The notes under the pieces are model-generated. The model worked only from the letters and a program-made list of their open reading frames with translations, was not told where the DNA came from and made no database searches. From Megasphaera massiliensis (GTDB taxonomy: Bacteria > Bacillota > Negativicutes > Veillonellales > Megasphaeraceae): a stretch of 63,127 nucleotides of DNA. Made by a program: the position numbers and the translations under genes. The DNA lies in the NCBI RefSeq assembly GCF_000455225.1, contig NZ_HF954535.1, positions 59,632 to 122,758 on the forward strand, in the 5' to 3' direction. Shown in pieces: positions 1,629-27,497 of the stretch (position 1 is the stretch's first letter; the number at the start of each line of letters is the position of its first letter).

Positions 1629-1660
1629 TAAAAGGTCGCAGAAAAATAAAGGCTTTCTTC

Positions 1661-1822
1661 CGCTAGCTCTGTCCTTTTGCCTGAGAGATTAGAAACAATA
1701 TCCTTGCACCTTCGGCGCCCAAATGGGACTCTCCAGAGTCGTGTCCACACACGGTCCCACCCCCTTAGGGGCACCTGAGAGTTTGACTCCGTCGGTAGGC
1801 TGTGCCTTCTCCCGTGTGTTTC
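1661..1822 (-). promoter_or_regulatory. tandem glycine riboswitch
   Basis: Two aptamers lie one after the other on the minus strand. Each ends in the conserved glycine-riboswitch core: CAAACTCTCAGGTG for the first (about 1760-1780) and CTCTCAGGCAAAAGGAC for the second (about 1671-1688). A G-rich GGAGAAGG / CTGGAGAG half precedes each. A promoter lies upstream and a T-tailed hairpin downstream, before the AGCS gene. Known glycine switches of this build let glycine bind cooperatively. Whether glycine turns this gene on (antitermination) or off is not decided by the sequence alone. Confidence 0.93.
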
Positions 1823-23168: not shown

Positions 23169-24409
23169 ATGGCTCACGTAAATGAAAACTACTTGAAACT
23201 CCCCGGAAATTACCTCTTTGCGACGATTGCAAAGAAAGTAGAAGCTTACTCCAAAGCACATCCGGAAGCGAATATCATCCGTCTCGGCATCGGCGACGTC
23301 ACCCGTCCCCTGGCATCGGCCATCATCGACGCCATGCATAAAGCCGTCGACGAAATGGGCAAAGCCGAAACCTTCCGCGGCTACGGTCCGGAACAGGGCT
23401 ATGACTTCCTCCGCCAGGCCATCATCGACGGTGACTATAAAACACGGGGCATCGACCTCGATCTTGACGAAGTCTTCGTCGGTGACGGTGCGAAAACGGA
23501 TGTTGCCTGCATCCAGGAAATCTTCGGCAGTGACCTCAAATTCGCCGTAGCCGATCCGGTCTACCCGGTCTACCTCGACTCCAACGTCATGTGCGGCCAC
23601 ACGGGCGAATGGAATGCCGAAAAGGGCATCTATGACGGCGTCGTCTACCTTCCCTGCACGCCGGAAAACGGTTTCAAAGCCGTACCGCCGACGGAAAAAG
23701 TCGACATCGTCTACCTCTGCAACCCTTCCAACCCGACAGGCACGGCCATGAGCAAGGAAGAACTGGCAAACTGGGTCGCAGCGGCAAAGAAAATAACTTC
23801 ATCATCATCTATGACTCGGCCTATGAAACGTACATCACTGAACCGGACGTTCCTCACAGCATCTTTGAAGTCGAAGGGGCCAAAGAAGTCGCCATCGAAC
23901 TGCGCTCCTACTCCAAATGTGCCGGCTTCACGGGCACCCGCTGCTCCTACGTCGTCGTTCCCCATGCCTGCACGGCGTATAAAAAAGACGGCACGGCCGT
24001 CGAACTCAATCCCTTGTGGAACCGTCGTCAGTGCACCTTCTTCAACGGCACACCGTACATCGTCCAGCGCGCTGCCGAAGCTTACTACAGCCCGGAAGGC
24101 CAGAAACAGTGCTTGGCTGACGTCAAGTACTACATGGAAAATGCCCACATCATCCGCGACGGCCTGACCAAAGCCGGTTTCACCGTCTACGGCGCTACCA
24201 ACTCGCCGTACGCCTGGGTACAGACACCGAACGGCATGAAGAGCTGGGACTTCTTTGATCTCCTCCTCGAAAAAGCCCACGTCGTAACGACACCGGGTTC
24301 GGGCTTTGGCCCCCACGGCGAAGGCTACCTCCGCCTGACGGCCTTTGGCACCAAAGAAAATACGATCGAAGCCGTCAACCGCATCGCTAATTTAAATTTA
24401 TTCAAATAA
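23169..24409 (+). pseudogene. dapL: LL-diaminopimelate aminotransferase, disrupted by a one-base frameshift
   Basis: DapL makes LL-diaminopimelate from tetrahydrodipicolinate in one PLP-dependent step for lysine and peptidoglycan. Frame 1 runs from ATG 23169 (AAGGAGG upstream) through IRLGIGDVTRPL, GYGPEQGYDFLR, FVGDGAKTD and LCNPSNPTG to AAKK near 23792. The homologous protein then continues in the -1 frame ([22 protein letters not shown] with the PLP Lys, then the C-terminal domain) to the stop at 24409. Restoring one A in the A run 23790-23793 would give a full 413-aa enzyme of family length. Without it the product stops at 24167 and lacks the PLP Lys. The cause could be a sequencing or assembly error, a true mutation, or frameshifting. 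The rest of the gene shows no decay, which favours an error. Confidence 0.93.
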
Positions 24410-25563: not shown

Positions 25564-25616
25564 GAAAAAAGCTCATCCCGTGACAGCAGCTTACTGCCAT
25601 GGGATGAGCCTTTTTC
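25564..25616 (+). terminator. bidirectional terminator after ychF and xre
   Basis: GCTCATCCC pairs with GGGATGAGC, with six A before and five T after. The right edge touches the stop of the minus-strand xre gene. Confidence 0.85.
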
Positions 25617-25866
25617 ATAAGACTTGTACTTCTTCTTCGCTCTTCAGATTGGGTCGAGGCGTCCGTTCATCGGTCAGACCGGCAATGTAATCTAAGGACG
25701 TATGGTACAGCTTTGCCAGCTGAATCAGTTTTTCTACGGGAATCTTTCGTTTTCCCAATTCGTACATGCCATATCCAACTTGAGAACATTTTAAAATTTT
25801 GGCTACATCAGCTTGAGAAAGTCTCGCCTCCAATCGGAGCGTCTTCAAACGGCTGTAGTATTTCAT
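25615..25866 (-). CDS. small XRE-family HTH regulator
   Basis: This 83-aa protein is essentially one HTH_3 domain: LKTLRLEARLSQADVAKILKC followed by SQVGYGMYELGKRKIPVEKLIQLAKLYHTSLDYIAGLTD. It would bind DNA as a dimer; no sensor domain is present. The gene begins only a few bases from the left end of the IS605-type element. No ribosome site is visible in the 20 nt before the ATG: the nearest GGAG is 18 nt away, inside the element's hairpin. Its original leader may therefore have been replaced by the insertion. Target genes are unknown. Confidence 0.8.
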   Translation of the reverse strand: MKYYSRLKTLRLEARLSQADVAKILKCSQVGYGMYELGKRKIPVEKLIQLAKLYHTSLDYIAGLTDERTPRPNLKSEEEVQVL

Positions 25867-25872
25867 CTAAAT

Positions 25873-25917
25873 GCGGGCAGGATACTCCGACCTCTTAGGT
25901 CGGGGAGGAAGGCCCGC
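25873..25917. mobile_element. left-end hairpin of IS605-type element
   Basis: Outer arms GCGGGC (25873-25878) and GCCCGC (25912-25917) enclose a second perfect stem CCGACCT/AGGTCGG (25887-25903) with a three-base loop. Subterminal hairpins like this are recognised at the ends of IS200/IS605 elements. The exact left junction is not fixed; it should lie within about 10 nt left of the hairpin. Confidence 0.55.
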
Positions 25918-26015
25918 TTCACCTCACTTTCTTTAAATACTAGAGTTTTAGTAACATATATGATATGGTGGTCTTGATGAAAGCCATATAATTTTAGAAA
26001 GGCAGGTGAGAAAAA

Positions 26016-27242
26016 GTGTCCGACCTAACTAAAACGATAAAACTTCGCATCCATGTTTCTCCGGAGCAAGAGATACTGTTTCGTCAAATGACGGAGCAGT
26101 ATCGTCAGGCTTGTAATTTTGTGTCGCAATACATCTTCGACAATCAATTCAACTTGGCTTATCAAATCCTCAACAAAGAACTATACAGCGACCTTCGTAA
26201 TCAATTCGGGCTGAAGTCACAGCTGGCACAGTCATCCATCAAGACGGTTATCGCCCGTTATAAGACTGTCAAGCAGCAGTTATTCCAGAAACCATACAAA
26301 TACAAGGACAACGATGGCAGCTGGAAATATATCCCTAAGACGCTTGAATGGCTTTGGAAGCCCCTCTTCTTCAAGCGCCCGCAAGCGGATTTAGTTCGTA
26401 ACCGTGATTACAGCTTCGTGGACAACGGACAAAACCTGTCTCTCAACACCCTTGGCAAACGAACCCGGTGCACCTTTGAAAGCAAACCATTTTCGGAATA
26501 CCTCGATGGCTCATGGAATCTCGGTACGGCCAAACTGGTTGAACTCAAAGGCCTGTGGTATCTGCATATCCCAGTCACCAAAGCGGTTGAAGGTTTCCAA
26601 AAGGAAAACGTCCGTCACGTTGTCGGGATTGACCGTGGCTTGCGATTCCTGACAGTCAGTTACGATGAGCAAGGAAAAACAGAGTTCGTTTCCGGGCGAA
26701 AGATTGCTGCCAAACGACATAAGTTCCTCAAAATCAGACAACAACTCCAATCCAAAGGCACAAAATCGGCAAAGCGCAGACTCAAAGCCCTTTCCGGACG
26801 AGAGAACCGTTGGATGTCCGATGTAAATCATCGGATTTCTAAGACACTCGTTACGAAATACGGCAAGGATACATTGTTTGTACTGGAAGATTTGACGGGT
26901 GTCAGCTTTGAAGCATCGAATCTCTCCCAAACTGCAAAGCAGAACTATGACCTGCGGAGCTGGACTTTCTATCAGCTTGAGCAATTTCTGACCTACAAGG
27001 CTCACGAAAACCGCTCGAAAGTATTGAAAGTCTCGGCCAAATACACCTCTCAGCGTTGCCCGAAATGCAGTACAATCCACAAGGAAAACCGTAAGCCTCA
27101 CAAGCATCTGTATCGCTGTCAGTGCGGATACCAATCCAACGATGACCGTATCGGAGCTATGAATATCCAGCATCTTGGTACGATGTGGATTTCCGGAGAC
27201 AATCACCCTCGTTACGAGAGAATTGCAACGGCCTCGGAGTAA
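26016..27242 (+). CDS. tnpB: TnpB, RNA-guided nuclease of an IS605-type element
   Basis: This 408-aa protein has an N-terminal helical/beta region (LTKTIKLRIHVSPEQEILFR, residues 4-23) and a RuvC-like nuclease. The catalytic acids are intact: D206 in GIDRGL, E291 in VLEDLTG and D377 in NDDRIGAMNI. A zinc ribbon uses C348, C351, C368 and C370 (CPKC...CQC). Characterised TnpB proteins are guide-RNA-directed DNA nucleases, with the guide made from the element's right end. No tnpA is present, so this is a tnpB-only copy needing a partner in trans. Its codon use is less C-ending than its neighbours. GGCAGGTGAG lies before the start, a GTG or the following codons near 26016. Confidence 0.93.
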   Translation: MSDLTKTIKLRIHVSPEQEILFRQMTEQYRQACNFVSQYIFDNQFNLAYQILNKELYSDLRNQFGLKSQLAQSSIKTVIARYKTVKQQLFQKPYKYKDNDGSWKYIPKTLEWLWKPLFFKRPQADLVRNRDYSFVDNGQNLSLNTLGKRTRCTFESKPFSEYLDGSWNLGTAKLVELKGLWYLHIPVTKAVEGFQKENVRHVVGIDRGLRFLTVSYDEQGKTEFVSGRKIAAKRHKFLKIRQQLQSKGTKSAKRRLKALSGRENRWMSDVNHRISKTLVTKYGKDTLFVLEDLTGVSFEASNLSQTAKQNYDLRSWTFYQLEQFLTYKAHENRSKVLKVSAKYTSQRCPKCSTIHKENRKPHKHLYRCQCGYQSNDDRIGAMNIQHLGTMWISGDNHPRYERIATASE

Positions 27243-27376
27243 ATCTCCTTGGCAAAACGGGCATCGTCAACTGCCCGATGATGTAGGCAGAATTAGGGAG
27301 ATGTTGTTCTTAGCATCGCTACTACCTGTGTTTCTCTGACTTACAAGCTCCGCTTCTATAAAAGGGAGTCGTTGAC
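27243..27376 (+). ncRNA. probable right end of IS605 element and candidate omega (guide) RNA region
   Basis: Downstream of tnpB the sequence contains several short hairpins, for example CGGGCA..TGCCCG at about 27259-27275. It ends in a terminal stem GCTCC.CTT/AAG.GGAGT (27347-27369) followed by GTTGAC. Right ends of this family often close with a hairpin and TTGAC, and in studied tnpB elements this region is the scaffold of the guide RNA, with the guide taken from the flank. The boundary at about 27376 and the RNA itself are inferred. From 27377 to 27457 I see only AT-rich sequence. Confidence 0.5.
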
Positions 27377-27457
27377 GTCATCACCTGTTTTCATCATTAT
27401 CGTATTCCAGAAGTACATTAGTAATGTCCTTTATACTATTATAGTAAATATATAAAA

Positions 27458-27497
27458 AGACGGCAATGATTATCTGCATATAATCGTTGCCGTCTTT
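27458..27497 (-). terminator. dld terminator
   Basis: AGACGGCAATGATTA pairs with TAATCGTTGCCGTCT around a short loop. A T run follows on the minus strand (A run at 27454-27458). Confidence 0.85.

What the first reader, a model, noticed from the sequence alone, without database searches (positions are those of the whole stretch)
25867..27376. tnpB-only IS605-type element with structured ends and a possible guide RNA
TnpB keeps its full RuvC triad (D206, E291, D377) and zinc ribbon, but there is no tnpA. A nested hairpin marks the left end, and a terminal hairpin plus GTTGAC the right end. The 134 bp after tnpB could be the guide-RNA scaffold, with the guide read from the flank at 27377 onward.
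Basis: partly seen in the sequence, partly recalled or inferred. Interest (0 to 1): 0.55.

Follow-up and report, generated by a model that had tools for sequence, protein, structure and literature searches.

The report
Transposase-less TnpB element with guide RNA
A 1.5-kb mobile DNA element in a gut bacterium carries only an RNA-guided DNA-cutting enzyme and, by comparative evidence, the guide-RNA scaffold that goes with it; it is a clear new example of a known kind of element, sitting right in front of a gene's start codon.

Summary
The element is exactly 25867-27376 (1510 bp): two close relatives carry the uninterrupted site, joined base for base at TTTCAT|GTCATC, and a third does at lower identity. 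It encodes an intact TnpB (D206/E291/D377, zinc ribbon) and no TnpA, follows TTCAT (the presumed TAM) and ends in GTTGAC.

The guide-RNA idea is well supported. A scaffold (27232-27376) is conserved in 33 aligned right ends, with two-sided base changes in 21 of 35 pairs (0 of 500 shuffles reach this). A GUCAAC loop can pair with the terminal GUUGAC, a pseudoknot beside the guide as in ISDra2 omegaRNA. No Rfam family matches.

It is a new member of a known kind: the tnpB-only IS1341 group of IS200/IS605. Two extras: TTCAT is the reverse complement of ATGAA, and 8 of 19 copies sit directly before a start codon with a Shine-Dalgarno match, the window copy among them (only slightly above non-coding expectation). 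Copies show purifying selection (dN/dS about 0.1), also in a one-contig genome where no intact Y1 transposase was found. No RNA or cleavage data exist here; function is inferred.

The parts
25862..25866 (+). TTCAT, presumed target-adjacent motif (TAM) and left cleavage site; on the minus strand it reads ATGAA, start of the HTH gene
   Evidence: TTCAT before 19 copies with both ends read (collected by that pattern); present in the three uninterrupted sites
25867..26015 (+). left end of the element
   Evidence: boundary from uninterrupted sites and from copies with different flanks
25873..25917 (+). nested left-end hairpin with internal loop, probable TnpA binding site
   Evidence: DNA fold z = -3.55; similar fold in 19 of 19 copies
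26016..27242 (+). tnpB, 408 aa, RuvC triad D206/E291/D377 and zinc ribbon C348/C351/C368/C370
27232..27376 (+). predicted omegaRNA scaffold (helices P1, P2, P3, P5 and a pseudoknot)
   Evidence: covariation in 33 right ends; fold of this copy
27232..27252 (+). helix P1 of the scaffold; the tnpB stop codon (27240-27242) lies in its loop
27258..27277 (+). hairpin P2 whose loop holds GUCAAC (27266-27271), 5' half of the pseudoknot
27282..27345 (+). long-range helix P3 with inner hairpin
27347..27369 (+). terminal hairpin P5, bulged in this copy
27371..27376 (+). GTTGAC, last bases of the element and 3' half of the pseudoknot
   Evidence: boundary; 197 of 197 counted pseudoknot cells pair
27377..27396 (+). 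presumed guide read from the flank (about 16-20 nt, length by analogy with ISDra2)
   Evidence: first 40 nt identical at the uninterrupted sites L102 and L103, first 18 nt at L104, each directly after TTCAT; length inferred
25615..25866 (-). HTH gene (83 aa) cut off from its leader by the insertion; neighbour, not part of the element
   Evidence: PF01381 match; uninterrupted leader with AGGTGAT before the ATG in L102-L104

Best explanation
This is a non-autonomous, tnpB-only IS200/IS605-family element (IS1341 group). A Y1 TnpA acting in trans most likely moved it, as single-stranded DNA cut between TTCAT and GTTGAC, into a TTCAT site without target duplication. The tnpB transcript runs through the right end into the flank, and TnpB most likely trims it to an omegaRNA made of the 27232-27376 scaffold plus about 16-20 nt of flank. 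The ribonucleoprotein then cuts any copy of the site that lacks the element (TTCAT followed by the guide), so that repair from an occupied copy restores the element. Shown here: exact ends, precise insertion, intact TnpB reading frame, conserved scaffold, matching uninterrupted targets in relatives. Inferred: transcription, processing, cleavage, which TnpA helps, and retention by repair.
For: Uninterrupted sites joined at TTCAT|GTCATC without gain or loss at the junction in G010 (297/300), G009 (288/300) and G002 (251/301). Guided_TnpB model 202 bits; RuvC triad invariant in 17 of 17. Two-sided changes in 21 of 35 scaffold pairs, 0 of 500 shuffles as high, slid controls 36-44% paired against 94.1%. 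Pseudoknot partner of the terminal GUUGAC present in all 33 rows, as in the ISDra2 omegaRNA (passages of PMC10097598). dN/dS about 0.11 between copies. TAM plus 18-40 nt of guide intact at three uninterrupted sites.
Against: No RNA or cleavage data. Of the pseudoknot's six pairs only one shows a two-sided change in the alignment. The scaffold of the window copy alone folds only modestly better than shuffles (z = -1.78), and its terminal hairpin is bulged. No helper TnpA with the same ends was found in the genome, though one of five loci could not be read fully beside the gene because of a masked stretch.
Confidence: 0.85

Rival explanations
1. A decaying relic of an IS605 element: TnpA lost, TnpB and RNA no longer at work, copies merely left over.
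For: No tnpA; copies in this genome are 90.1-91.9% identical, so not a recent burst; the terminal hairpin of the window copy has lost a base; broken copies exist in G002 and others.
Against: Four of four copies in this genome keep a full-length reading frame; dN/dS averages 0.117 and 0.108 in two sets of copies; scaffold pairs are kept by two-sided changes. Caveat: copies may have diverged elsewhere before arriving, so selection in place is not shown.
Confidence: 0.1
2. The right-end structure acts only as DNA (TnpA binding) and not as a guide-RNA scaffold.
For: Hairpins at both ends are typical of IS200/IS605 elements as TnpA sites (PMC9956272 passages). The window scaffold alone folds only modestly better than shuffles (z = -1.78).
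Against: Helices upstream of the terminal hairpin show two-sided changes and there is a long-range pairing with the last six bases, more than a terminal hairpin needs. The covariance model finds the scaffold in this genome only at the four tnpB copies.
Confidence: 0.03
3. A domesticated regulator: TnpB and guide act on the leader of the neighbouring HTH gene without cutting, as TldR repressors do.
For: The guide equals the antisense of the HTH gene's leader, and the insertion lies at its start codon.
Against: RuvC triad intact in 17 of 17 copies; copies sit at many unrelated genes; in this genome the leader is interrupted, so the guide's target with TAM is no longer there (one search gives only the two halves).
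Confidence: 0.02

Closest known systems
IS1341 group of the IS200/IS605 family (tnpB-only elements; PMC9956272, passages seen)
   Same: One tnpB gene between subterminal hairpins, no transposase, 1.5 kb; lengths reported there run from 1252 to 2382 bp
   Different: No difference in kind found; this family has its own TAM (TTCAT), right end (GTTGAC) and a scaffold without an Rfam model. Whether it has an ISfinder name could not be looked up.
ISDra2 TnpB and its omegaRNA (PMC10097598, passages seen)
   Same: TnpB nuclease; scaffold read from the tnpB 3' region and right end; stems plus a pseudoknot with bases just before the guide
   Different: ISDra2 carries tnpA; its pseudoknot core is three canonical pairs with flanking non-canonical ones, here six standard pairs are possible; different TAM (ISDra2 TTGAT is recalled)
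TnpB orthologs that process their own mRNA (PMC10278001, passages seen)
   Same: Scaffold overlaps the end of the tnpB transcript, so mRNA processing is the likely source
   Different: Processing not tested here
TldR RNA-guided repressors (PMC13418256, search listing with start of abstract only)
   Same: TnpB-like protein with a guide; here the guide lies in a gene leader
   Different: TldR nuclease inactivity is recalled; here the catalytic triad is intact and copies are at unrelated genes

Membership tests
IS200/IS605 family, IS1341 group | tnpB as the only gene, without tnpA or Y1 remnants | tested here: met
   Y1 model PF01797 gives no match in the element; tnpB fills 26016-27242 with 149 and 134 bp outside it. 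Serine-recombinase remnants were not searched separately.
IS200/IS605 family, IS1341 group | subterminal hairpins at both ends | tested here: met
IS200/IS605 family, IS1341 group | insertion 3' of a short fixed motif without target duplication | tested here: met
   uninterrupted sites; TTCAT before 19 copies, (pattern-selected), TTTAT and TTCAC in one each
IS200/IS605 family, IS1341 group | mobilised by a Y1 transposase in trans | not testable with these tools
   five Y1 genes in the genome, none with these end motifs found beside it
TnpB RNA-guided nucleases | TnpB family model, RuvC D-E-D and zinc ribbon | tested here: met
TnpB RNA-guided nucleases | omegaRNA scaffold at the right end with guide-adjacent pseudoknot | tested here: met
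   by comparison only; pseudoknot has one two-sided change in the alignment
TnpB RNA-guided nucleases | guide RNA made and DNA cut next to the TAM | not testable with these tools
   needs RNA sequencing and cleavage assays
TldR RNA-guided repressors | inactivated RuvC (recalled) | tested here: not met
   triad present in 17 of 17 copies
Described RNA families in Rfam 15 | match to a curated covariance model | tested here: not met
   no match at gathering score; one unrelated snoRNA model far below its gathering score at E 0.77

The most novel reading that the evidence does not exclude
Start-codon homing without a transposase. The TAM TTCAT is the reverse complement of ATGAA, so the nuclease addresses translation starts, where the TAM cannot be lost by mutation without hurting the host gene. 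Such copies would be kept and spread mainly by RNA-guided cutting of empty alleles and repair, like a homing endonuclease, also in genomes that no longer have a working cognate TnpA. For: 8 of 19 copies at such starts against 100 of 1085 ATGAA sites overall (p 1.5e-4) and 45 of 222 outside long ORFs (p 0.025); TTCAT aligned at 25 of 25 start-codon sites of relatives (three of them with small insertions at or beside the junction) against 5 of 10 other sites; low dN/dS and no intact Y1 gene found in G002. Against: the excess over non-coding sites is slight and was noticed after the fact, and the guide itself drifts: for the 14 sites of L032 it is 180 of 224 bases identical (80%) against 1033 of 1226 (84%) in the rest of the right flank (summed).
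Probability: 0.15. Interest if true: 0.6.

Novelty: new member of a known kind. Interest (0 to 1): 0.36.

Why it matters
It gives a boundary-checked tnpB-only element family with a comparatively supported omegaRNA that has no Rfam model, ready for testing as a compact nuclease with a predicted TTCAT TAM. PMC9956272 calls it unclear whether IS1341 elements are autonomous or decayed, and itself leans to independent evolution (passages). This family speaks against simple decay: diverged but intact copies, a conserved RNA, and persistence in a one-contig genome where no intact Y1 transposase was found. The start-codon placement suggests how a TAM can tie an element to sites that the host cannot easily mutate away.

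Tried and rejected
Rejected: TldR-type regulator (triad intact); recent burst in this genome (copies 90.1-91.9% identical); orphan scaffolds in this genome (model R1 finds only the four tnpB copies there; in G009 one partial match, G009:C13:44236-44327, is not tied to a tnpB match, and it ends where a contig of that length ends). The idea that the guide is specially conserved at start codons failed.

Led nowhere: the AlphaFold model from nine sequences is poor (mean pLDDT 62.6, much of the RuvC part under 50), so no fold search was run. The promoter and terminator scan is at chance level. Paper searches for TnpB with start codon, TAM and insertion, with TTCAT, and with ribosome binding site listed nothing whose title or abstract start describes a start-codon bias; one search listed no description of this scaffold. 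The library lacks most subscription papers. Left ends were not resolved for L052, L080, the nine plasmid and phage loci, and several broken or cut-off copies.

Rows dropped: alignment A1 uses 33 of the 37 right ends collected; L059, L061, L064 and L082 were left out for long insertions or divergence, and L043 was not collected because it contains N. By eye all four left out can form the same pseudoknot (with G-U pairs in L061). L032 is misaligned in the terminal hairpin of A1, and one of its pseudoknot cells is a gap. The dN/dS and triad count left out L061 and L088. In one search only 30 loci were fetched, so weaker uninterrupted sites were not examined. The background includes the window's own element; that does not.

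Full report
What was checked. The sequence and ORF list show a GTG-started 408-aa ORF at 26016-27242. It matches NF040570 guided_TnpB with 202 bits (cut-off 100) and the Pfam families PF07282 and PF01385 above cut-off. The best solved chains by sequence are named Cas12f and IS605 OrfB/TnpB proteins; in the printed alignments D206, E291 and D377 fall on the D, E and D of the RuvC motifs (motif assignment recalled). The triad is present in 17 of 17 full-length copies compared.

Ends. A search of the window's own genome (2.74 Mb, 28 contigs) finds the window copy, three further copies at 92-93% protein identity, and two distant TnpBs. The four copies are collinear between TTCAT and GTTGAC and diverge outside. 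The two flanks of the window copy, joined at TTTCAT|GTCATC, match one uninterrupted place in G010 (297 of 300 bases), in G009 (288 of 300) and in G002 (251 of 301 columns), with no gap at the junction. The element is therefore exactly 25867-27376 and made no target duplication. Copies at other places also have gap-free uninterrupted sites: L032 in the 14 other genomes of the genus, L046 and L037 in G006. The sites of L002, L004 and L057 in relatives differ by small insertions or in the TAM.

Target motif. TTCAT precedes 19 copies with both ends read. L050 has TTTAT and no right end found; L068 has TTCAC and runs off its contig; other left ends were not resolved. Because the 19 were collected with TTCAT in the pattern, this is a description, not a blind count.

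Guide RNA. The scaffold of the window copy alone folds modestly better than shuffles (z = -1.78), so the case rests on comparison. In 33 aligned right ends from Megasphaera, Selenomonadaceae, Lactobacillaceae and phage relatives, RNAalifold finds 28 pairs, 18 with two-sided changes. For my structure of 35 pairs, 94.1% of cells pair, 21 pairs show two-sided changes and the covariation score is 0.368; none of 500 shuffles reaches these values, and versions with slid partners fall to 36-44% paired. Shuffles ignore relatedness; the slid controls keep it, but the structure came partly from one of these sequences, which favours it over slid versions. The helices are P1 (with the tnpB stop codon in its loop), P2, P3 and the terminal P5. 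Two of the eight P1 pairs are unpaired in most sequences. The P2 loop GUCAAC and the terminal GUUGAC can pair in every row (197 of 197 counted cells); of the six pairs one shows a two-sided change (L052: GUCAAU with AUUGAC), three vary on one side and two never vary. L064, outside the alignment, has the same paired change as L052. [quoted passage not shown] The covariance model R1 finds the scaffold at four places in this genome, those of the four tnpB copies, and in 5 of 15 genomes of the genus, the same five that have the near-identical TnpB. Rfam has no matching model.

Layout and spread. The element holds no tnpA. The genome has five Y1 genes elsewhere. The left-end and right-end hairpin motifs of this element were not found beside any of the five within 3 mismatches, though a masked stretch beside one limits that. 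Two of their elements were read further and have other ends, one following TTTAA. In the class, 16 of 380 genomes have a relative at E <= 1e-60. Relatives under 60% identity occur in 44 plasmid and 4 phage records; 22 of the 44 plasmids are from the named lactobacillus genera, 9 from Deinococcus. In the nine plasmid and phage loci that I opened no second transposase gene is annotated next to tnpB, but one has no annotation and the plasmid tables are incomplete. G002, a one-contig assembly listed at 99% completeness, has seven full-length copies and one in two pieces, while its three Y1 matches are one gene with an internal stop and two pieces of another. Pairwise dN/dS averages 0.117 among five copies of G000 and G010 and 0.108 among seven of G002. 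Since copies may have diverged before arriving, this shows selection on the family and not necessarily in place.

Insertion at a start codon. TTCAT reads ATGAA on the other strand. In the window copy the ATG is the start of an 83-aa HTH gene (25615-25866, minus; PF01381). The insertion separates it from its leader, which ends in ACAGGTGATGAC and is intact in L102, L103 and L104. Of 19 copies, 8 have an ORF of at least 60 codons starting at that ATG with a Shine-Dalgarno match of at least 4 bases. The background in 263 kb of this genome is 100 of 1085 ATGAA sites (p 1.5e-4), and 45 of 222 outside long ORFs (p 0.025). For 30 right flanks, a match of at least 4 bases occurs in 16 against 250 of 1095 and 78 of 229 (p 3e-4 and 0.023); of at least 5 in 10 against 76 of 1095 and 42 of 229 (p 2e-5 and 0.036); of at least 6 in 5 against 32 of 1095 and 21 of 229 (p 0.002 and 0.14). 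Most of the excess is thus what a TTCAT target plus avoidance of coding regions would give. The test was made after seeing the pattern, and copies from other genomera were held against the background of this one genome. In relatives, TTCAT is aligned at 25 of 25 sites of the three start-codon copies followed (L001, L032, L057; three of the 25 with small insertions at or beside the junction) and at 5 of 10 sites of four other copies. The guide is not better kept than the rest of the flank: for L032, 180 of 224 bases against 1033 of 1226 (summed).

Mechanism. The best account is the known one for TnpB elements: single-strand transposition by a Y1 enzyme in trans, a guide read from the flank, cutting of the empty site, and repair from an occupied copy. 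A preprint, PMC11870625, describes this and its gene-drive effect on plasmids (passages); PMC10278001 describes processing of the mRNA by TnpB (passages). Here TAM and guide are intact at three uninterrupted sites (40, 40 and 18 nt). Shown: ends, insertion, intact reading frame, conserved scaffold. Inferred: RNA production, cleavage, helper transposase, retention.

Verdict. The observation and the interpretation are both sound. The element fits the IS1341 group by the features tested. PMC9956272 calls it unclear whether such elements are autonomous or decayed (passage). It is a new member of a known kind, with a start-codon habit that deserves a blind test.

Noticed in passing
window 23169-24409 (+): An aminotransferase gene resembling dapL (name recalled) reads in one frame to about 23795 and goes on in another frame to the end: a frameshift, either a broken gene or an assembly error.
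   Followed up: partly
window 1659-1746 (-): Glycine riboswitch aptamer, 64.3 bits against a gathering score of 32.
   Followed up: no
L004 2811-2877 (-) and L075 1352-1418: In these two copies the left-end hairpin is a nearly perfect long inverted repeat without the internal loop of the others.
   Followed up: no
L009 and L160 (G000:C1:45837, G009:C52:13513): A different element with a Y1 gene, 92.7% identical over 1.8 kb between the two genomes and following TTTAA; L009 also shows a tnpB-like ORF behind the Y1 gene.
   Followed up: no
window 27456-27497: A long palindrome (AAGACGGCAA...TTGCCGTCTT) between the element and the FAD-linked oxidase gene, kept at the same place in relatives; possibly a shared terminator.
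   Followed up: no
L052 (IMG/VR contig of 60 kb): A copy of this family on a viral contig, whose right end ATTGAC and loop GTCAAT have changed together; its left end was not resolved.
   Followed up: partly
L082 (class relative): A diverged relative with one internal TAA in the matched frame but a recognisable right end.
   Followed up: no
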